Shown here in pieces: positions 26,331 through 34,440 of a DNA stretch of 34,440 nucleotides (position 1 is the stretch's first letter; each line of letters starts with the position of its first letter). Location of the stretch: contig JAFSRW010000039.1 in NCBI GenBank assembly GCA_017445925.1, forward strand, positions 1-34,440. Reading direction: 5' to 3'. Source of the stretch: Bacteroidaceae bacterium. GTDB lineage: Bacteria > Bacteroidota > Bacteroidia > Bacteroidales > Bacteroidaceae. The notes under the pieces were generated by a model, which searched no databases, was not told the origin of the DNA, and was given only the letters and a program-made list of their open reading frames with translations. Both the position numbers and the translations under genes were made by a program.

Positions 26331-26483
26331 TTGGGCATACCCTAAAAGGCACTAAAAACATCAATTGAGTTTGGAGCCTAAATTTTCTATAGTTATAAAC
26401 ATCCTCCTTCTTCCCTCTTACATCTTACATCATCAGTTATTCAGGCTTCTTACTCATTACAAAATAAAAAAATTGTGAGGATT

Positions 26484-26515
26484 ATTGGTGGTATAAAAAA
26501 TTATACCTACTTTTG
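26484..26515 (+). promoter_or_regulatory. promoter with embedded operator, DUF4160-DUF2442 module 1
   Basis: The -33-like ATTG (26484-26487), a 20-bp spacer and TACTTTTG (26508-26515). The spacer contains a perfect inverted repeat, GGTATAA-AAAA-TTATACC (26490-26507), directly abutting the -7 box. A repressor bound there would block RNA polymerase. The second module has a related element in the same place. Confidence 0.75.
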
Positions 26516-26531
26516 CAAAAAAGATAAATGT

Positions 26532-26765
26532 ATGCCCACATTATTAACAATATTTGGACTAAGGTTTTTCTTTTACATGGATGAGCACGAACCCATTCAC
26601 GTACATGTTAGCTATGGAGGGAAAGTCGCAAAAATTGAGTTGGAACCGAACATACGTGTTATTTATAACCACGGATTAAAAGAGCAAGATTTAAGAAAAG
26701 CTGTAGACACATGTAAAACATTCAGGGAGAATTTTATAAGTGAGTGGCATAAGAGGTTTGACTAA
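26532..26765 (+). CDS. DUF4160-family protein (module 1)
   Basis: A 77-residue protein. The family pattern is seen: MPTLLTIFGLRFFFYMDEHEPIH, where E-H-x-P-x-H-x-H-V follows the aromatic strand, then K-I-E-L and a C-terminal helix with W-H-K-R. DUF4160 proteins are small, nearly always next to a DUF2442 gene, and are discussed as toxin-antitoxin-like; activity is not known to me. The His-rich EHEPIHVHV could bind metal. I start at ATG 26532, which gives the family N-terminus and follows the promoter by 16 bp. The partner gene follows after 10 bp. Confidence 0.75.
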   Translation: MPTLLTIFGLRFFFYMDEHEPIHVHVSYGGKVAKIELEPNIRVIYNHGLKEQDLRKAVDTCKTFRENFISEWHKRFD

Positions 26766-26775
26766 TTAAACTAAT

Positions 26776-27198
26776 ATGATTATGGAAACAATAAAGAATT
26801 TGTGGTTCGAAGGAAACCGAATATACATTAAGACCACCGACGACAGAATACTAAGCAGACCTTTGGAAGCATACCCCGAACTTGAGGAAGCAACTGCAGA
26901 ACAGCGAAGCAACTTTAGTTTAGAGGATGACGGACTGGCTATTAGGTGGGAGCAGATAGATGTAGACATGCATATTTCCAGTTTCTACGAAACCTCGGAG
27001 CCAAACACTCAAAACGAAGTTGCCGCAATGTTTCGTCGTTTTCCATGGTTAAATGTTTCTGAGGTGGCTCGTTATCTGAATATCAACAAAAGTTTAATGG
27101 CTAGATACATCTATGGTATTTCTAAACCCAGCGCCAAAAGAATCCAAGAAATCAGGGAGGCATTTCACTACTTTGGTCGCGAATTAGAAAGTGCTTAA
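26776..27198 (+). CDS. DUF2442 protein with C-terminal HTH (module 1)
   Basis: A 140-residue protein. Residues about 1-65 are a DUF2442-type domain (IKNLWFEGNRIYIKTTDDR, then PLEAYPELEEATAEQRSNF and IRWEQIDVDMHI). Residues about 85-130 look like an XRE-type helix-turn-helix (VSEVARYLNINKSLMARYIYG). The HTH makes it the likely DNA-binding repressor of its own operon through the palindrome in the promoter. ATG 26782 is an alternative start. The paralogue at 32757-33158 has the same two-part layout. Confidence 0.75.
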   Translation: MIMETIKNLWFEGNRIYIKTTDDRILSRPLEAYPELEEATAEQRSNFSLEDDGLAIRWEQIDVDMHISSFYETSEPNTQNEVAAMFRRFPWLNVSEVARYLNINKSLMARYIYGISKPSAKRIQEIREAFHYFGRELESA

Positions 27199-27295
27199 AT
27201 TAGTTTATTCAGGAGGGGGAATAACCAACTAGGAAACTTTTTGGTATCGATTCGACAATGCTCCGTTTCCTGGGTGTGCAACTGTCATTCATCGG

Positions 27296-27333
27296 AAAAA
27301 GTGAACGGAAATGCTCCGTTTTCGCCACTTTTG
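27296..27333. terminator. possible hairpin terminator after module 1
   Basis: AAAAGTG and CACTTTT form an outer stem, with ACGGA and TCCGT as an inner stem. The hairpin lies about 100 bp after the DUF2442 gene and ends in a short T-run. AATGCTCCGTTT also occurs about 55 bp upstream as a direct repeat. Confidence 0.4.
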
Positions 27334-27377
27334 TACACGGAATCAAAAACTATATAATCTAATGCATCAGGCATTTT

Positions 27378-27512
27378 TCAATCATCAAGGTCTTCATCCA
27401 ATTGGCACGTTAAATCATCCTCAGCAGTCCAACGACTTCTACCTTTTTTGCTTGCATTATTCAGAGCACGGGCAAAAAGAAAGAATACTATCACAGCAAT
27501 TATTATCCACAT
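27378..27512 (-). CDS. tiny membrane protein, 44 residues
   Basis: Starts at ATG 27512 and ends at TGA 27378-27380. It begins MWIIIAVIVFFLFARAL, one transmembrane helix, followed by a basic turn (KKGRSRW) and an acidic tail (EDDL ... LDEDLDD). The first residues match the 27-residue ORF at 27723-27806 (MWI-x-x-AV), suggesting a common origin. It is the third of three consecutive tiny minus-strand ORFs, 12 bp after the acidic one. Real expression is not proven. Confidence 0.5.
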   Translation of the reverse strand: MWIIIAVIVFFLFARALNNASKKGRSRWTAEDDLTCQLDEDLDD

Positions 27513-27524
27513 AGTTGATACACA

Positions 27525-27674
27525 TTACCAATCCTCATCTTCTCTATCTTCATCATCATTGTCATCATCATCTGATGAATAAAGGCTTCTATCTTCCCTT
27601 TCTCTTTCACGCTCACATTCTTCATGAGCGTCCTCTATGGCCATCACAGCCAGAAAATCTGTAAAATCTAACAT
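27525..27674 (-). CDS. tiny acidic protein, 49 residues
   Basis: ATG 27674 to TAA 27525-27527. It starts MLDFTDFLAVMAIEDAHEEC, then alternates Glu-Arg and ends in a run of Asp/Glu closing with EDW. More than half of the C-terminal 30 residues are acidic. It may be a partner of the tiny membrane proteins on both sides, which is inference from position. DNA-mimic or RNA-polymerase-binding roles are only speculation. Confidence 0.5.
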   Translation of the reverse strand: MLDFTDFLAVMAIEDAHEECEREREREDRSLYSSDDDDNDDEDREDEDW

Positions 27675-27722
27675 GATACACTTGTTTTTAGGTTACAACA
27701 CTTACTCATTACTCTCTCTCAT

Positions 27723-27806
27723 TCAGCCCTGCTGAGCTGAAACGTTTCCATTATTGTCACCAGATAAAATGAAAAGCATAAAAAACACTGCAAATACAAT
27801 CCACAT
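27723..27806 (-). CDS. tiny membrane peptide, 27 residues
   Basis: ATG 27806 to TGA 27723-27725. MWIVFAVFFMLFILSG is a single hydrophobic helix, followed by a short polar tail (DNNGNVSAQQG). Upstream on the minus strand is GTACTTTGCC, a near match to a -7 box about 30 bases from the start. Such a size and composition fits small membrane proteins, including type I toxin-like peptides, but chance cannot be excluded. Confidence 0.4.
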   Translation of the reverse strand: MWIVFAVFFMLFILSGDNNGNVSAQQG

Positions 27807-28187
27807 AATTTTATTGTTTTATTGGTTTACAGTGGCAAAGTACGATTCGGGTTGTACCATAGCGTGGCACAGTCTCGAAAAATCTTCAATTTTTCCTCAA
27901 AATTTAACTCTTTTTAAGAATTTGAGGGCTATTTTCGTCTAATTATAAGCTTTTAAGTCGTCTCCATGCACAAAATCTGGTTTATTCAGGAGGAGGAAAA
28001 ATCAACTTCGAAAAATTTTTATTTAAGCTATTTTTTGCACGGAAACAAGTTAGAAAATTATCACAAATTAGCTGCAAAAAGTTTGAAGCCTAAAATCTAT
28101 AAATAGTTGCCTTACTCATCCTCATCAATTTTTCATTTATCTTCTTCCTCAAATAAAAAAGTGGATAAGAAACAGCCCTTAATTCCT

Positions 28188-28418
28188 AAAATCTCATCAT
28201 TGAGTTCTTTTTTGAACGATTTTCCTTTGTCAATTCAGAAAAACGCCTTATATTTGCAGCAGAAAACTTAAAGTTTGACCAAAACAAGCGGGGGGGTAGA
28301 CCACGAAAGTGGAGCCTCCCGTTCCCTTTTTTATCCGTTACATTATGTAAAGAGATTATCAAGTGCTACGAAATTACCCAAATCAACCATGGTGGTAAGC
28401 AAAATGTCTAATACTCAT
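28188..28418 (+). repeat. flanking direct repeat, copy 1
   Basis: 231 bp, closely similar to 32075-32299 with a few small indels. It contains a full promoter (28226-28256). From 28289 to 28321 it contains a two-part hairpin: the outer stem CGGGGGG/CCTCCCG, then the inner stem CCAC-GAAA-GTGG with a GNRA-type loop. A T-run follows. The small ORF present in copy 2 is broken here by indels and lacks an ATG. The last 11 bp overlap the end of mcrC. Confidence 0.88.
28226..28256 (+). promoter_or_regulatory. promoter within repeat copy 1
   Basis: TTTG (28226-28229), a 19-bp spacer and TATATTTG (28249-28256). Both boxes are identical in copy 2, although neighbouring bases differ. Transcription would run rightward toward the 3' end of mcrC, antisense to it. 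Confidence 0.75.
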
Positions 28419-29895
28419 TTTCTATTTCCATTTCATTCCGAAACTTATATGGGTTTATATGGTATGTATTCGTAAGCTCCGCATAAGGGCAAAATTTCGT
28501 TAATTGTACGACACCGAACTTACATGGTTCATATTCCTTGTCACCAACAATCTTGTACAACTTATCTTCTTTGATGTCGTACAACCATTTCTTGTCGTAT
28601 TCCTCGAACCTTGCGGCTATAGTTGGCAACGGAACCGCTATTCTGTAGAAATTCCAAAGACATCGGTCTTCTTCATTTAGAAAGTCTTCCAATTGCTTAT
28701 TCTTAAAGGGATTTTCTTCCTCACCTTCAACTGGATAGATAATCACACATGGAATATTTGATTCCGGCTTTTTCGTAAATATCCATTTATCTCGACTATA
28801 TCCACTCAGTTGTCGGACAATATAAGTATCGAGGTTTCCATATTCAAACCTTGGTATGTACTTGGTATCCATTACAACTTTGGGTGAATAGCAAACAAAA
28901 TCAGGATAACCAGTATGACCATGTACCTGATAATGAATTTTTTCCCCGTAAGCTTCACGAAGCAAGCCCAATACATAATGCTCATACAACATGGCCATGT
29001 CAATCCAAAAGGCAGGACAATATTCTTCTTCAGCCGTAGTGATATTGGTAATACTGTAATCATACCGATGGAGTATCATCTGTGCAAGTTTGATGGCATC
29101 ATCGTATTCCTTGAATATTTTATGATGTTTGATTGCTTTGACTTCCCAAACCTCAATTTGATCGCTGACTTTACAAAAAGCTGACAAGCACTTATGAAGA
29201 GTGTGCTGCAAAGAGATAAGACTTTCTGAGATTCCTTCGTTCTGCAAAATATGTTGAGAGAATATCAGGGCTTTTTTTATCAACCTGTTCTCTAATGTGT
29301 CCTCAGAATATCCTTGGTAACGACAAAACACCTTGTCATATCGTTTTTTCATAATATTCATCCGCTCATTTCGAGGAATGTCAATACGTCCTCTAACTTT
29401 ATTGAGGTTCCCTTCTCGCTGGACATAGTCTTTCTTCAATCCTCTTTTGACAATCTCCTTGACGATAGAAAGGAAATGTACAACAATAAGGGGACTCAGA
29501 ACGCTTTTGAGTTCTGGTGCCTTAATACGGGGTTCCTCCATGTCAACAGCATATATCTTTGAGAACTCCTTGGCTTCAATGCCACTATTAAAACAGACGC
29601 TGAACATCTTTAGGAAGTCAATGCGATCACAGCCTTGCTTGGTTGTTATAACAAGAGGCATGGTTTTGGCTTCATCAAACCATTGTGCCCCTATGACGTA
29701 TGATGCGTAATAACCCGACTCTGAAACATCTGGTTTTTCAGAATCCTGTTCGTCAACTATTATGGAGCTATTACGCCACTGCCACTGAAAGAACCATCTG
29801 TCCAGACCTTTGCTTTGGCTTGGAAGACGCATACCTTCCCCCCAAATCTTTTGAAAGGCGAAGGAGTCGTATGGTATCTTTTCGTGTTCTTGCAT
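28408..29895 (-). CDS. mcrC: McrC-type endonuclease subunit
   Basis: A 495-residue protein. The N-terminal half has the McrC pattern, including NKVRGRIDIPRN and YQGYSEDTLENRLIKKAL. The C-terminal PD-(D/E)xK nuclease is seen as YPDFVCYSPKVVMDTKYI with Asp332, Asp343 and Lys345. With McrB it forms a GTP-driven complex that cuts modified DNA (methyl- or hydroxymethylcytosine), a defence against phage. Its start overlaps the McrB stop by one base (TAATG). Its last codons lie in the direct repeat, which suggests the cassette boundary is exactly here. Confidence 0.85.
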   Translation of the reverse strand: MQEHEKIPYDSFAFQKIWGEGMRLPSQSKGLDRWFFQWQWRNSSIIVDEQDSEKPDVSESGYYASYVIGAQWFDEAKTMPLVITTKQGCDRIDFLKMFSVCFNSGIEAKEFSKIYAVDMEEPRIKAPELKSVLSPLIVVHFLSIVKEIVKRGLKKDYVQREGNLNKVRGRIDIPRNERMNIMKKRYDKVFCRYQGYSEDTLENRLIKKALIFSQHILQNEGISESLISLQHTLHKCLSAFCKVSDQIEVWEVKAIKHHKIFKEYDDAIKLAQMILHRYDYSITNITTAEEEYCPAFWIDMAMLYEHYVLGLLREAYGEKIHYQVHGHTGYPDFVCYSPKVVMDTKYIPRFEYGNLDTYIVRQLSGYSRDKWIFTKKPESNIPCVIIYPVEGEEENPFKNKQLEDFLNEEDRCLWNFYRIAVPLPTIAARFEEYDKKWLYDIKEDKLYKIVGDKEYEPCKFGVVQLTKFCPYAELTNTYHINPYKFRNEMEIENEY

Positions 29896-31883
29896 TAATC
29901 TGCTATGTAATCGATAATGGGGCTATAGCACTCGGCGTTCTGCCATTTTTCAAAATATTTATCATCATCTGTCATACTCCTGAGAATACCATCTTTGATA
30001 TACTCCTTAATGAGTGGAACTACCTCGTAGCGCATCTTCAGTTTGAGGCTCGCCATGTCTTTTGCCATAAAGTAACTATGACCAACTTTCAAATCCTCCA
30101 ATTCAAAATCGGAAGCTTTGTGTTTCGCTATGAAAGAACTGCTATCATTTCTGCCTATGCCATTAATCTGAGCGAACAAGGCAAGTGAGGCCTTCTTTAC
30201 ATCTGATGGTACAGATTGTGAGTCACACCAGTTTTCGATAACATCGACTCTTGATTCCAATGTAACAAACGCGAAGCGACGACGCACTGCATAATCGATG
30301 GTACCCGTAGAACGGTCGGTTGTATTCATTGTGCCAATAATATACAGATTTGAAGGAACAGAAAAATCTTCCTTTGAGTAAGGCAACTTTAGACTAATAT
30401 GATGTGCGCCACCTCCACTACGCTTGTCTGCTTCGAGTAATGTGATAAGTTCTCCAAATATCTTGGAAACATTGCCACGGTTTATTTCATCGATGATAAG
30501 TACGTATGGCTTATCAGAGACTTGATTCTCCAGCTTGTACTCCTTTTTCACCGCATTGATGAAAGCCTGAGCATAATGTCGCCAATTGTTCTCTACACCT
30601 TCACCAAGAGCTTGCATCTTTACCTTCTCAATGTTAAGAGGTGATGGAGTGTACTGATCTCCTTTTTCACTCTTTGACAATACGCTGCGTGTACTGATAG
30701 TGTCGTTACCTTCTGTCCACCACACATACAGCTCTGACTTTCCTGACAATGTAGGAATAGTCTTTTTATTCTCATATCCCTTGATAGTCTGGAGATATTT
30801 GTCAATGCAAGTTGCAATGTCTGCGTTTTCTTTCGTCTGGGCTAACTCACAAATGGTTTTGAATATACCGTTCTCTACATTGTACTCTACGGCATTGCCC
30901 TTTACCTCTGGTTTCAAGCCCTCGATAAAGTCTTCATAGTCCATAGACTGATGGAATGTGCAGAAGGCTATTTGCCCTTCATTCTGCATTCTTTCATACT
31001 CAGCCATCACCTTTTGATGGTCTTCAAAATCGGAAAAAGCAGGATTGCACATACCAACAGCAATGGCAGCTGTTTTATAAGTCTTGCCTGTACCAGGTGC
31101 ACCTTGCAGGATAATCTGTTTCTTTTGTTTGAGTATTTCTAATTCCGTCATAGCAGCTAATGTCTGAATATTATTATCTTTTTGATTCTCACCCTCAATT
31201 TGTTGTTTGTCATTTTTGCGTAATTTAGTAAAGTAATTCCACATTACAGTCTGGGCAATGAGCATAGTACTCTGAATGCAACCTTCTTTTTGTATTTCAT
31301 TATTGATGGAATCCATCAGTTCTGAGTCTTTCTCAACGAGAGGAACCAAATATTGTCTTAGCAACTCATAGAAATGAACAAGCTTTTGACCAGCCTTTTT
31401 GGGCTCTACATTAAGAATACTACATAAACTGTCATATACATCACTTTTGTAGAACGTATACTTTTGAGGATTCTGTAAGGTCAAGAAACAACTTATCAAC
31501 CTCTCGTCACACATTGCACTTGTTTTTTGATTGAAATTCTTCTTAATCTTTTCGTTCCACAGAGTTTTGCACGTAGAAGTGAAAGTGTCTATACGTTGTT
31601 GCAAATCTACTTCTTCATCAAATAAAATCTTAAACGCATTTCGATAGTCTTCAGGTTCAAACTCTGCAAAATGCTTCATAGCAGTTGGCTGAGTTTTGTA
31701 ACAAAGATTCTCGAACTTAAGAGCTTTTATCTCATTTGCGAAATCTTCCGCATTGACATTTGGATGACCAATTTGTTTAGTCACCAATTTCCATTTATAT
31801 AGTTCATGTTGCATGGAATCACCATTTAGCCCATATTGTAGCTGATGATTCTTGAACGCAGTTACTATTTCGTTCAGATTCAT
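29895..31883 (-). CDS. mcrB: McrB-type AAA+ GTPase subunit
   Basis: A 662-residue protein. Residues about 1-240 form an unfamiliar mostly helical N-terminal region, where McrB proteins carry variable modified-base readers. The AAA+ domain follows: Walker A QGAPGTGKTYKT with G261-T268, the Walker B region VLIIDEINRGNVSKIFGEL, and the McrB signature MNTTDRS (519-525), which gives GTP specificity. DYAVRRRFAF is the arginine-finger region. It pairs with mcrC. The N-terminus does not obviously match DUF3578 or EVE, so the DNA target is open. Confidence 0.87.
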   Translation of the reverse strand: MNLNEIVTAFKNHQLQYGLNGDSMQHELYKWKLVTKQIGHPNVNAEDFANEIKALKFENLCYKTQPTAMKHFAEFEPEDYRNAFKILFDEEVDLQQRIDTFTSTCKTLWNEKIKKNFNQKTSAMCDERLISCFLTLQNPQKYTFYKSDVYDSLCSILNVEPKKAGQKLVHFYELLRQYLVPLVEKDSELMDSINNEIQKEGCIQSTMLIAQTVMWNYFTKLRKNDKQQIEGENQKDNNIQTLAAMTELEILKQKKQIILQGAPGTGKTYKTAAIAVGMCNPAFSDFEDHQKVMAEYERMQNEGQIAFCTFHQSMDYEDFIEGLKPEVKGNAVEYNVENGIFKTICELAQTKENADIATCIDKYLQTIKGYENKKTIPTLSGKSELYVWWTEGNDTISTRSVLSKSEKGDQYTPSPLNIEKVKMQALGEGVENNWRHYAQAFINAVKKEYKLENQVSDKPYVLIIDEINRGNVSKIFGELITLLEADKRSGGGAHHISLKLPYSKEDFSVPSNLYIIGTMNTTDRSTGTIDYAVRRRFAFVTLESRVDVIENWCDSQSVPSDVKKASLALFAQINGIGRNDSSSFIAKHKASDFELEDLKVGHSYFMAKDMASLKLKMRYEVVPLIKEYIKDGILRSMTDDDKYFEKWQNAECYSPIIDYIAD

Positions 31884-32112
31884 TGTGTTCCCTTGAAAAT
31901 TACGTTGTATAATATATTATCTTTATGATATTGATTCTCTCTCCGATATTTATTAGACTTCTATGTGTTGAACAAACTTTTCATGCCTATAAGGTAATTA
32001 AAGTCCTCTGATTATTTATTATTTTCTTTGTTTAACAATGGCTATGTTATAGTATTTATGCTGCAAAAATAATAAAAATCTTATCATTGGGTTCTTTTTT
32101 GAGCGATTTTCC

Positions 32113-32143
32113 TTTGTTAATTCAGAAGAACGCCTTATATTTG
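32113..32143 (+). promoter_or_regulatory. promoter within repeat copy 2
   Basis: TTTG (32113-32116), a 19-bp spacer and TATATTTG (32136-32143). It drives the hairpin/ORF region of the repeat; the expected start of transcription is near 32150. Confidence 0.75.
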
Positions 32144-32161
32144 CAGCAGAAAACTTAAAGT

Positions 32162-32266
32162 ATGACTATAACATGCGGGGAGTGTACCACGAAAGTGGAG
32201 CTTCCCGTTCCCTTTTTATCCGTTACATATGGAAAAGAGATTGTCAGGTGCTACGAAATCACCTAA
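32162..32266 (+). CDS. possible 34-residue protein in repeat copy 2
   Basis: ATG 32162 to TAA 32264-32266, 18 bp after the promoter. The protein starts MTITCGECTTKVELPVPF and has a third cysteine at position 30, so it could be a small zinc-binding peptide. In copy 1 the ATG is TTG, the first two Cys codons are lost and the frame is shifted, though the final KEI..CYEIT part is kept. It may be a decaying gene family or just sequence over a functional RNA. Confidence 0.4.
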   Translation: MTITCGECTTKVELPVPFLSVTYGKEIVRCYEIT

Positions 32267-32371
32267 TTCATGGTGGTAAATAAAATGTCTAATACTCATA
32301 TATAAAGAAAAGGCGATATTTGTTCAGAACAAGATATGTCGAACATAATGAAAAAGTACAAATAAAAGTGT

Positions 32372-32379
32372 TATCTTTG
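32372..32379 (+). promoter_or_regulatory. -7 box of the 90-residue ORF
   Basis: TATCTTTG ends only 4 bases before ATG 32384, so the transcript would be leaderless or nearly so. No -33 TTTG is seen. Confidence 0.5.
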
Positions 32380-32383
32380 CATC

Positions 32384-32656
32384 ATGAAAAAGAAGGAAGG
32401 CTTGTTGAAAGTTTATAATGTAGACAGTCTCTCTGCAATAGCAGATGATGAGATTTTAATGCTTGCCCAATTAGGTGAACTTGGATTGATAACCCAGAGT
32501 GCATCTTGTAAAGTATGGGCTTTCAAAAGTGAACATGAGCTTGCTGAACATATAAGAAAAGCCTTAGAACTTGGGAAAGAATTAAGCGTTTCTTTTGGTT
32601 GGGGTGAGTTTTATGGTCCAGATAAGATAACTGTTGAATTTAAAACTGATGATTAA
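32384..32656 (+). CDS. unknown 90-residue protein
   Basis: Begins MKKKEGLLKVYNVDSLSAIA and is then mixed alpha/beta: LAQLGELGLIT, SEHELAEHIRKALELGKELSV, and FGWGEFYGPDKITVEF at the end. No signal peptide or cysteine pair. It is an acidic, soluble protein. I do not recognise the family. It lies immediately right of repeat copy 2 and points toward the second DUF4160-DUF2442 module (convergent). Its position inside the accessory cluster suggests a link with defence or mobility, without direct evidence. Confidence 0.6.
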   Translation: MKKKEGLLKVYNVDSLSAIADDEILMLAQLGELGLITQSASCKVWAFKSEHELAEHIRKALELGKELSVSFGWGEFYGPDKITVEFKTDD

Positions 32657-32756
32657 AAAGTTAAATAATTGAAATACAGCTATTTAGCTTTGATTTTCTT
32701 GCTCTTTTATTTGGAAATACCATTTTTGTATCCTACAGATAGCTTACCCTCTTCTA

Positions 32757-33158
32757 TCATGCTGCCAACATCTCTTCGCCCAGTCTGTGAATATGGGAAA
32801 TGATTTCCTCTTCACGCTCTTTCGAAGGTTTTTTGAAACCATTAATATAATTTCGGAGCAAAGTGGGGTTTATGCCAATTGAACGGGCAAACTCTGCAAC
32901 GTTGATTTCTTTATGTGTCAGGAAGAAACGCTGCAAAGCACTCGGTTCGGCATCATCGTAACCGAAGCTCTCAAAACTTATGTCCTCGTCAAGGTCGCGC
33001 CAATGGATACCACCCTTTCCGAAGGTGTATTTACTGCGTTCCTCGTCGGAGGCATTACGCAACTTTGGATACCACAGCAATGATTGCTTGTACTCCTTTC
33101 CCTTTTCGCCCTTGCCGTAAATATAGTTGGCATCGAACCAAATCTTCGTAATCTTCAT
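32757..33158 (-). CDS. DUF2442 protein with C-terminal HTH (module 2)
   Basis: A 133-residue paralogue of the protein at 26776-27198. The N-terminal part (ITKIWFDANYIYGKG, WYPKLRNASDEERSKY, IHWRDLDEDISFESF) matches the DUF2442 pattern. The C-terminal VAEFARSIGINPTLLRNYINGFKKPSKE is an XRE-like HTH. It follows its DUF4160 partner by 16 bp. Sequence identity with module 1 is moderate, so the modules are old paralogues rather than a fresh duplication. Confidence 0.75.
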   Translation of the reverse strand: MKITKIWFDANYIYGKGEKGKEYKQSLLWYPKLRNASDEERSKYTFGKGGIHWRDLDEDISFESFGYDDAEPSALQRFFLTHKEINVAEFARSIGINPTLLRNYINGFKKPSKEREEEIISHIHRLGEEMLAA

Positions 33159-33174
33159 TGTTCAGCCCTCCCTT

Positions 33175-33417
33175 TTAGTCATTGTCAAAATACTCTTTCC
33201 AACGCTTAAGAATAATGTCTGCATTTTCATCAACCACCTTCTTTATCTTCTTAAAGTCGTTTGCTTTTATCCCTTCTTTTTCAACTAATACAAACTCCTT
33301 TCCGTCCCAGTCGAACTTGGCCATACCGTCATTACCTTCCACATGAATATGTGGTGGCTCATGCTCCCTGCTGTAAAAGAAGAAGGAGAAACCATAAAAT
33401 CTGAATACTTCTGGCAT
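33175..33417 (-). CDS. DUF4160-family protein (module 2)
   Basis: An 80-residue protein, paralogue of 26532-26765: MPEVFRFYGFSFFFYSREHE followed by PPHIHV, then an AKFDWDG strand and a C-terminal helix ending W-K-E-Y-F. ATG 33417 is chosen because it gives the family start and lies 31 bases after the promoter; the longer upstream reading covers the promoter. It precedes its DUF2442 partner in the same order as module 1. Confidence 0.75.
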   Translation of the reverse strand: MPEVFRFYGFSFFFYSREHEPPHIHVEGNDGMAKFDWDGKEFVLVEKEGIKANDFKKIKKVVDENADIILKRWKEYFDND

Positions 33418-33448
33418 AATCCTATTATATATTTTGTTCTTTTTGGTG

Positions 33449-33480
33449 CAAATATAGGAATTATTTTCGATACCTTCAAA
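33449..33480 (-). promoter_or_regulatory. promoter with embedded operator-like element, module 2
   Basis: On the minus strand TTTG (33477-33480), a 20-bp spacer and TATATTTG (33449-33456). The 18 bases directly before the -7 box (GGTATCGAAAATAATTCC) match the module 1 palindrome at 14 of 18 positions in the same register, though the inverted symmetry is less complete here. Confidence 0.75.
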
Positions 33481-33576
33481 TTTGTTGGCACTTTTCTTGC
33501 TTTTTTCCATCAACTATAACCGATTCAGGGGGTGTATTGTACAATAAGAGTTGACACACAAGAAAAAACGCCAAAC

Positions 33577-34016
33577 TGCCTACATGCCTACATAAAATCG
33601 TTTGAAATTCGCATGGTTGTCGAGTTTCTCTCACTTTCAAGCATACATAATGCCTACATGGAGCCTACATGATGCCTACATGTTTTTGAGGTGTTAACAG
33701 TAAGGGAACAAGAATGAAGCAACGTATTTGCATGTTATTTGCTTCTTGGTAGTAAAGGAATTCTCTAGAGAATTTAGCAGCTTCCTCGTGTAATAGCAAT
33801 TGTTTGCACGTTACTTAGCAGAAAATTCTCTAGAGAATTTCAAAACAAGCAATAAAGAGGCTTTTTGCAAACAGGCAAATTAGATTCTGCAAGCTCCTTA
33901 TCGCCCATTTTTATGTAGGCACAATGTAGGCTATATGTATGCTTTATGTAGGCTCACGAATGCAACAATCCCTGTATTCATCGTGAGTTTCGGCAAAATC
34001 ATGTAGGCATGTAGGA
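33577..34016. repeat. dyad-symmetric field of GCCTACAT/ATGTAGGC words
   Basis: Left side: five copies of (T)GCCTACAT at 33577, 33585, 33651, 33662 (as GCCTACAT from 33663) and 33673. Right side: ATGTAGGC at 33913, 33924, 33946 and 34001, plus ATGTAGGA at 34009. The two sets are in inverted orientation about a centre near 33797. No gene is seen in 33514-34301; this field fills most of it. The remainder consists of short-period repeats at 34073-34210. Confidence 0.88.
33759..33839. repeat. two identical 16-bp palindromes at the field centre
   Basis: AATTCTCTAGAGAATT at 33759-33774 and again at 33824-33839, with centres 65 bp apart. Each is preceded by a similar TTTGCAyGTTAyTT sequence. Their midpoint (33799) is almost the midpoint of the flanking GCCTACAT/ATGTAGGC field. 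Confidence 0.9.
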
Positions 34017-34072
34017 AGATTTGAGTTTTTTTGCAAAAAAAATGGAAACGGGACAATGGACTTACGGATATT

Positions 34073-34206
34073 CCAACCTTAACGTTAACGGGAACAATAT
34101 AATGGTTATAGGTTATAGGTTATAGGTTATTGACGATTTTCAATGGGAAGGATAACCTTGACCTTAACCAGTTTGAGTGGTTTAAGAAGTTTAAGATTTC
34201 AAGGAG
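34073..34206. repeat. hexamer, heptamer and nonamer arrays
   Basis: 34073-34096 hexamers: CCAACC, TTAACG, TTAACG, GGAACA. 34104-34131 heptamers: GGTTATA three times and GGTTATT. 34151-34168 hexamers: GATAAC, CTTGAC, CTTAAC. 34171-34197 nonamers: GTTTGAGTG, GTTTAAGAA, GTTTAAGAT. The unit length changes but each array stays near 20-30 bp. Confidence 0.75.
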
Positions 34207-34288
34207 TTTAAGTCCTTAATGAAGAGGCTTCACGTTGTAAAAATATGAAATAAATGGGAACCACAAAAATATTTCTCAAAAAAATGTG

Positions 34289-34296
34289 TACATTTG
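34289..34296 (+). promoter_or_regulatory. -7 box near the right edge
   Basis: TACATTTG, 5 bases before ATG 34302, so the transcript would be leaderless or nearly so. No -33 box is seen. Confidence 0.4.
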
Positions 34297-34301
34297 CATC
34301 C

Positions 34302-34412
34302 ATGTTTAAAGAGAAAGATTTCATTTTAGACGAAATATTCGGCGATCGACTGCTTATTAGTGTCAGAGCAGATCAAACAGAACTTAACGACAACATCAGG
34401 GTCGCACAATAA
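34302..34412 (+). CDS. possible 36-residue protein
   Basis: ATG 34302 to TAA 34410-34412. It starts MFKEKDFILDEIFGDRLLIS and continues with a polar helix to a VAQ end. The first half has amphipathic character; no motif is recognised. The preceding -7 box supports transcription. The ORF could be a short gene or the broken start of a longer one, as the sequence continues without an obvious new start to the window end. Confidence 0.4.
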   Translation: MFKEKDFILDEIFGDRLLISVRADQTELNDNIRVAQ

Positions 34413-34440
34413 AATAGTTAAAAAAGTACTGAGGACATAG

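What the first reader, a model, noticed from the sequence alone, without database searches (positions are those of the whole stretch)
28188..32299. McrBC cassette flanked by 225-231 bp direct repeats carrying a promoter and a hairpin
Both copies have the same orientation, opposite to mcrBC. Each holds an intact TTTG-19-TATATTTG promoter and a hairpin with a GNRA-type GAAA loop. One outer-stem pair changes A-U to G-C between the copies while the loop and inner stem are unchanged, which suggests selection on RNA. The cassette end coincides with the mcrC stop. The repeat may be an integration target, a transposable unit, or a regulatory RNA that reads antisense into mcrC. The direct repeats would also let the cassette be lost by recombination.
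Basis: partly seen in the sequence, partly recalled or inferred. Interest (0 to 1): 0.75.

Follow-up and report, generated by a model that had tools for sequence, protein, structure and literature searches.

The report
Orphan phage-toxin antidote RNAs beside McrBC
The two repeats beside a bacterial defence operon are stray copies of a tiny folded RNA that some gut and rumen phages carry next to a toxin gene, so they look like RNA antidotes, an idea still to be tested at the bench.

Summary
The repeats are real: 28188-28418 and 32075-32299, 87% identical, flanking a complete mcrBC. The meaningful unit is a promoter-driven hairpin RNA inside each. Relatives share a covarying 13-bp structure (5 pairs changed on both sides; 0 of 500 shuffles) in unrelated flanks. 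In phages this RNA lies just past the stop of MuF-type head proteins that end in a CdiA_C-like toxin domain, mostly on the opposite strand. Of intact toxins found by protein search alone, 15 of 15 have a promoter motif 42-71 nt past the stop on the opposite strand (controls 3 of 93), followed by an RNA whose type follows the toxin type. One phage backbone carries four different toxin-RNA modules. Of 13 genomes with the window-type RNA one encodes the toxin, so the window copies are orphans. A second orphan RNA beside this one in three loci also occurs as the neighbour of an LPD3-type MuF toxin. Best reading: phage toxins with RNA antidotes, and hosts keeping orphan antidote RNAs, sometimes in arrays. 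Toxin-RNA linkage is well supported; neutralisation is inferred. Integration-site, transposon and antisense-to-mcrC readings are not supported.

The parts
28188..28418 (+). repeat copy 1 (orphan RNA gene, type A)
   Evidence: 87% identical to copy 2
28226..28256 (+). promoter TTTG-19-TATATTTG of copy 1
   Evidence: read from sequence; motif scan
28288..28322 (+). type A hairpin, copy 1, followed by UCCCUUUUUU
   Evidence: R3 match 28283-28336, 67 bits, in seed; covariation
32075..32299 (+). repeat copy 2 (orphan RNA gene, type A)
32113..32143 (+). promoter TTTG-19-TATATTTG of copy 2
32175..32208 (+). type A hairpin, copy 2, followed by UCCCUUUUU
   Evidence: R3 match 32170-32222, 76 bits, in seed
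28408..29895 (-). mcrC (PF10117), with a C-terminal tail beyond the matched domain
29895..31883 (-). mcrB (AAA_5; NCBIfam McrB below its cut-off)
32064..32071 (-). TATTTTTG, possible promoter element of mcrBC, abutting copy 2
   Evidence: motif scan only

Best explanation
Each repeat is a small RNA gene. Its hairpin is the partner RNA of a toxin that some Bacteroidales phages carry as the C-terminal domain of a MuF-type head protein, presumably injected with the phage DNA. In the phage the RNA is made from its own promoter, mostly on the opposite strand just past the toxin gene. It most likely binds the toxin (a predicted RNase) and protects the producing cell, in place of the usual immunity protein. 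The two copies beside mcrBC are orphans: the host would make the antidote RNA without the toxin, beside a defence operon, and so resist phages or lysogens that deliver this toxin. Shown: structure, covariation, toxin linkage, co-swapping, orphan status as far as draft genomes allow. Inferred: transcription, RNase activity, binding, neutralisation, delivery, benefit to the host.
For: (1) 20 aligned hairpins: 99.2% of cells paired, 5 pairs changed on both sides, 0/500 shuffles reach this; pairs that are G-U in most copies fix the sense strand. (2) 15 of 15 intact toxins found by protein search alone have TAnnTTTG on the opposite strand 42-71 nt past the stop (recounted). Controls: 3 of 93 other ORF ends (its Fisher p of 5.6e-15 used 14 loci, 3 of them first found through the hairpin). 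(3) RNA follows toxin, not phage: L016, L085 and L098 share the MuF part (58-71%) and the next gene but have different toxins and RNAs; type A toxins on three unrelated N-terminal parts all have type A RNA. (4) L124, found by its toxin, carries a type A RNA with flipped pairs (40 bits, E=2e-12). (5) No immunity ORF shared by the toxins as a set. (6) Toxin in 1 of 13 genomes with the RNA. (7) The orphan RNA next to type A in L007, L015 and L029 turned up in one further viral contig, L137, in the usual slot (promoter motif 73 nt past the stop) beside a MuF protein with another C-terminal domain, LPD3.
Against: Only the most distant toxin (L083) matches a known toxin family, CdiA_C (E=2.8e-8); type A toxins tested match nothing in Pfam or PDB sequences. 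Folding of the 15 cognate RNAs is uneven: z from -0.4 to -4.8, 8 of 15 at -2 or lower, and for L097 and L098 the minimum-energy fold is not the stem I propose. A broken toxin, L107, keeps a type F RNA but its promoter is one base off. Only 10 of 19 type A RNAs caught by a regex have TAnnTTTG within 45 nt (random 3.6%); some sit past tRNA or protein genes. Most genomes are incomplete drafts. The LPD3 match is one case, and my expectation was not written down before the search. Two other units of the G686 array found no partner.
Confidence: 0.7

Rival explanations
1. The RNA is a cis-antisense regulator (type I-like) that silences or processes the toxin mRNA's 3' end in the lysogen; orphan copies are decayed leftovers.
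For: In the toxin loci examined, except L014, the RNA is convergent and abuts the toxin stop, so it would pair with read-through mRNA.
Against: Cis-antisense needs no fixed sequence, yet sequence and structure are kept beside toxins only 54-76% identical and in 12 of 13 genomes where no toxin was found. In L014 the RNA is codirectional. Orphans of different types sit together.
Confidence: 0.12
2. The RNA is a cofactor or loading signal that binds the MuF-toxin for packaging into the capsid; hosts carry leftovers of prophages.
For: RNA tracks the toxin domain; the toxins are fused to head-type proteins.
Against: It tracks the toxin domain and not the MuF part, which should carry a packaging function; about half of the type A RNAs, orphans among them, keep a promoter.
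Confidence: 0.07
3. The repeat is an integration target, transposable unit or mobile promoter that brought in mcrBC.
For: Direct repeats flank mcrBC; this mcrC has only distant relatives (24-31%) in its genus, 9 of 139 genomes counting its own, so it was probably acquired.
Against: No paired copies elsewhere; unrelated flanks; the promoter part occurs without the hairpin in L006 (by eye).
Confidence: 0.05
4. The transcript encodes a very small immunity peptide (in many type A copies an ATG opens the hairpin) and the conservation is of codons.
For: Several type A changes are synonymous in that frame (by eye on A4); short opposite-strand frames across the RNA are alike within types.
Against: By eye: the start codon is not kept (copy 1 has none, L028 and L124 have GTG), copy 1, L007 and L042 have a single-base length change, other changes alter codons in pairs that keep the stem, and the frames have no common end.
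Confidence: 0.04
5. The hairpin is only a strong bidirectional terminator spread by chance.
For: A U-run follows the hairpin; it lies between convergent genes in several phages.
Against: Conserved internal loop (GGUGUACC..GGAGCC), own promoter just upstream in many copies, toxin-specific types, orphan arrays.
Confidence: 0.02

Closest known systems
MuF polymorphic toxins of temperate phages (Jamet 2017, PMC5576092, passages seen; Bxa family, Alexei 2024, PMC11699363, abstract and section 7 seen)
   Same: MuF head part fused to interchangeable C-terminal toxins; L031 matches the Bxa PHROG in its N-terminal half (residues 165-287).
   Different: [quoted passage not shown] here an RNA gene fills that place.
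Type III toxin-antitoxin systems (ToxIN, CptIN; review PMC5086642, passages seen)
   Same: Protein toxin, here probably an RNase, paired with a small structured RNA.
   Different: RNA is one hairpin from its own promoter, past the toxin and mostly convergent; not tandem repeats upstream in one operon; has orphan copies.
CdiA-CT toxins (PF18451 CdiA_C; review PMC9086364, passages seen)
   Same: The most distant toxin relative, L083, matches CdiA_C above its cut-off.
   Different: Fused to phage head proteins, and no shared CdiI-like ORF follows. The review does not mention PF18451, so the fold class is not settled.
Orphan immunity genes of CDI and T6SS systems (arrays of them recalled, from no call)
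   Same: Antidote kept without its toxin.
   Different: The antidote is an RNA.

Membership tests
Type III toxin-antitoxin | RNA upstream of toxin in one operon with an intervening terminator | tested here: not met
   RNA is past the toxin on the other strand with its own promoter motif; codirectional but also past it in L014
Type III toxin-antitoxin | antitoxin made of short tandem repeats | tested here: not met
   one hairpin RNA at the toxin loci
Type III toxin-antitoxin | pseudoknotted antitoxin RNA | tested here: inconclusive
   a nested hairpin explains the type A covariation; pseudoknots were not searched
Type III toxin-antitoxin | RNA binds and blocks the toxin protein | not testable with these tools
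   needs binding and toxicity assays
MuF polymorphic toxins | MuF/head-morphogenesis part | tested here: met
   PF04233 in L028 (3e-17; no Pfam hit in L016, L017, L031); PHROG head families in L016, L031, L028; TIGR01641 in L105
MuF polymorphic toxins | interchangeable C-terminal toxin | tested here: met
   L016, L085, L098, L137: same MuF part, different C-termini
MuF polymorphic toxins | small immunity ORF directly downstream | tested here: not met
   (17 loci, ORFs of 50 aa or more): nearest ORFs start 30 to 702 nt past the stop, except a 63-aa ORF overlapping the stop in L099. (18 loci, 122 ORFs of 30 aa or more): shared ones are a gene common to L016, L085, L098 (and frames overlapping it), a gene shared by L028 and L124, short opposite-strand frames across the RNA itself, and one 13-residue match between L096 and L097. 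No test against known immunity proteins was made.
CdiA_C (PF18451) | profile match above cut-off | tested here: inconclusive
   met by L083 (34.2 vs 26.6 bits); no match for L031, L028, L016, L080, L082
Type I toxin-antitoxin | antitoxin acts by base pairing with toxin mRNA | tested here: inconclusive
   position allows it; orphan conservation and L014 speak against it
Transposable or integrating unit | shared ends or paired copies at other sites | tested here: not met
Any Rfam 15 family | covariance model match | tested here: not met
   none at E<=1 in window 27000-34440; gathering-level hits do not overlap these RNAs

The most novel reading that the evidence does not exclude
There is a whole layer of RNA immunity against toxins that phages inject: each MuF toxin subtype travels with its own small folded RNA antidote, the toxin-RNA module is swapped as a unit between phages, and bacteria collect the RNAs without the toxins as orphan genes or tandem arrays, some inside defence islands, an RNA counterpart of orphan immunity-protein arrays.
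Probability: 0.56. Interest if true: 0.94.

Novelty: new variant of a known kind. Interest (0 to 1): 0.87.

Why it matters
The immunity to polymorphic toxins described in the listings and passages I saw is by proteins; the paper searches listed none by RNA (open-licence PMC papers only). If the RNA neutralises the toxin, searches for immunity genes that look only for ORFs have missed a class. Intergenic hairpins then become candidate antidotes against specific phage weapons, and islands such as this mcrBC locus may hold an extra, testable layer of protection.

Tried and rejected
Antisense to mcrC, integration site and transposon: rejected (see rivals). DNA-level hairpin (attC-like or cruciform): rejected because pairs that are G-U in most copies fix one RNA strand. 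Known RNA: no Rfam match (the three hits are far under their cut-offs). Phage and plasmid collections: no convincing match (two half-length matches at E=0.4 in capsid genes; none). A looser pattern in viral contigs added nothing. Partner toxins for two other units of the G686 array (L066): one search gave three matches, none in such a setting; one search gave none. A link between the C-terminal tail of mcrC and a 64-aa ORF near the hairpin in L027 (53% identity) stays unexplained. Nearness to defence genes (restriction genes in L029, PDC-S26 in L026, a MkoA-like helicase in L030) was not compared with a control, so no enrichment is claimed. In one search the first control set wrongly held toxins; one search replaces it. 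The toxin tree supports the type A clade (100/99) but leaves types B and C unresolved. Covariation in the six type C RNAs is only suggestive (30 of 500 shuffles reach the score; 306 of 500 reach the count of doubly changed pairs).
Full report
OBSERVATION. Both have TTTG-19-TATATTTG and a hairpin with a GAAA loop. No third full copy was found in the window's genome, a draft listed as 84% complete, and only these two score as the RNA there (the next matches have E of 0.86 or more).

THE UNIT IS THE HAIRPIN. A BLAST search of 139 genomes of the genus matched mostly the hairpin or only the promoter part. A pattern scan found the hairpin in 5 viral contigs and in 9 stretches of a collection of 84,980 species, all with Bacteroidales-type titles (Sodaliphilus placed there by recall). 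Covariance models found it in 6 of 139 genomes of the genus (R1; one of the six is weak), 14 of 399 of the family (R2; eight with E<1e-12, the other six weak and by eye mostly not this RNA), 6 of 393 of the order (R3; own genome, G686 and G617 strong) and 6 of 395 of the phylum (R3; only the own genome strong). These samples overlap. Every other genome with a strong match has one copy, and the flanks look unrelated. Across 20 aligned copies 99.2% of pair cells are paired, 5 of 13 pairs have changes on both sides, and none of 500 shuffles reaches that count or the covariation score. Three pairs are G-U in most copies (14, 19 and 20 of 20), so the RNA strand is the one read from the promoter. 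Rfam has no such family.

THE TOXIN LINK. In L016, L017, L028 and L031 the hairpin lies just past, and on the strand opposite to, a MuF-type head protein; in L014 it follows the end of such a toxin on the same strand. The N-terminal parts differ but the last ~165 residues are alike. These five were found through the hairpin, so they are not independent evidence. I therefore searched with the toxin domain alone. Viral contigs gave 6, 17 and 18 loci in three overlapping searches, and 6 of 301 family genomes were positive, one of them G105 known from the hairpin. After removing contigs with the same sequence past the toxin (L088, L091, L093, L095) and loci first found through the hairpin, 15 intact toxins with enough sequence past the stop remain: L085, L086, L087, L089, L090, L092, L094, L096, L097, L098, L099, L101, L103, L105 and L124. 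All 15 have TAnnTTTG on the opposite strand 42-71 nt past the stop; L096 and L105 have a second one at 85 and 82. Of 93 other ORF ends in the same loci, 3 have the motif at 20-100 nt. Folded from the motif onwards, all 15 RNAs form a stem-loop in the minimum-energy fold, but excess stability over shuffles is uneven (z -0.4 to -4.8; 8 of 15 at -2 or lower), and for L097 and L098 the fold is not the stem that I propose by comparison. Not counted: L106, a truncated remnant with promoter motif and type C RNA; L107, a broken toxin whose type F RNA is kept but whose promoter is one base off; L122, which has an RNA of the D/E type but ends before the promoter; L123, which has no sequence past the toxin.

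RNA TYPE FOLLOWS TOXIN TYPE. Grouped by eye. Type A: L014, L016, L017, L028, L031, L124. Type B: L094, L096, L097. Type C: L085, L087, L090, L092, L101, L106. Type D/E: L086, L089, L122. Type F: L098, L107. L099, L103 and L105 have RNAs of their own. Model R3 (type A) over 41 sources at E<=0.01 hit only type A loci and none of the 16 other toxin loci included (at E<=10 it also gives a 12.6-bit match at the type B RNA of L082). L016, L085 and L098 share the MuF part (58-71% identity over about 285 residues) and a homologous next gene, but carry different toxins (43-48%) and RNAs A, C and F. Conversely the type A toxins of L016, L017/L031 and L028 sit on N-terminal parts with no BLAST similarity at 1e-5 between these three groups, and all have type A RNA. 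L124, found by its toxin, has a type A RNA in which a stem pair and the loop-closing pair are flipped.

ORPHANS AND ARRAYS. Among 13 genomes with a type A RNA, only G105, which carries the prophage, has a match to the toxin domain at E<=0.01; two of the twelve others are listed as 100% complete, the rest are less complete drafts. L032 has a type F hairpin just upstream of its type A hairpin, preceded by a third hairpin behind a promoter motif. L007, L015 and L029 share another RNA-like element upstream of type A. I expected it to be a toxin partner too (not written down beforehand). The last viral scan found it in one further contig, L137: the same MuF part as L085, L098 and L016 (77, 72, 63%), by eye the same next gene, but a different C-terminal domain, LPD3 (PF18798, E=1.7e-16), with the RNA in the usual slot and TAnnTTTG 73 nt past the stop. 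One phage backbone thus carries four toxin-RNA modules: A, C, F and this one.

WHAT IT DOES. The toxin domain has no Pfam or PDB sequence match for the closer members tested, but the most distant, L083, matches CdiA_C. The CdiA-CT toxins of BECR fold reviewed in PMC9086364 (passages) are tRNases with one exception; that review does not name PF18451, so RNase activity here is a prediction. LPD3 occurs in the same context as predicted PBECR RNase domains in Helicobacter phage proteins (PMC5512222, passages). No ORF shared by the toxins as a set follows them, whereas MuF toxins usually have a small ORF there (PMC5576092, passages; PMC11699363, abstract and section 7). The simplest reading is that the RNA is the antidote. 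It works like type III toxin-antitoxin pairs but is not a member: not one operon, not upstream, not tandem repeats (PMC5086642, passages). The window copies are then orphan antidote RNAs beside McrBC. Why there are two, and what the conserved ~80 bp after the hairpin do, is open. Two near-identical units stand in tandem in L066, so duplication of such units may not be peculiar to this window.

LIMITS. Everything here is sequence evidence. Transcription, neutralisation, RNase activity and delivery are inferred. No structure could be predicted. The literature searches cover only open-licence PMC papers, and I saw listings, passages and the sections named, not whole texts.

Noticed in passing
L066 9000-10200: Tandem run of about six short units by eye, most with a promoter-like TAnnTTTG and a GC-rich stretch, two of them near-identical, one being the type A RNA.
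   Followed up: partly
L032, minus strand about 5480-5206: A promoter motif followed by three hairpins in a row: an unassigned one (z -3.7), type F, type A.
   Followed up: partly
L027 4993-5187: 64-aa ORF 53% identical to the C-terminal tail of the window's mcrC, about 120 bp upstream of a type A hairpin; the tail has no other match in the 139 genomes of the genus at E<=1e-5.
   Followed up: partly
28337-28418 and 32223-32299: The part of the repeat after the hairpin is also conserved between the copies, but no match to it was seen in the BLAST searches.
   Followed up: no
26475-27198 (+) and 32757-33513 (-): Two DUF4160-DUF2442 gene pairs in opposite orientation on either side of the mcrBC region.
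   Followed up: no
33563-34031: Inverted arrays of an 11-bp unit (GCCTACAT-like / ATGTAGGC-like) around a central gap.
   Followed up: no
L006 1501-1550: The promoter part of the repeat alone, 88% identical, just past a gene that looks like hsdR by eye, followed by a different hairpin-like stretch and U-run: possibly another small RNA.
   Followed up: no
L030 4540-4726: Type A hairpin 66 nt after a tRNA gene (Rfam tRNA).
   Followed up: no
L087 3982-4135: RT-3 RNA (Rfam RF03068) about 500 bases past a type C toxin-RNA module in a viral contig.
   Followed up: no
L063 and L065 1501-1549: In two other Bacteroidia genomes a weakly matching promoter-hairpin unit (GCGGGTATACGACGAAAGTTGTATGCCCG) in similar surroundings; may be an unrelated small RNA.
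   Followed up: no
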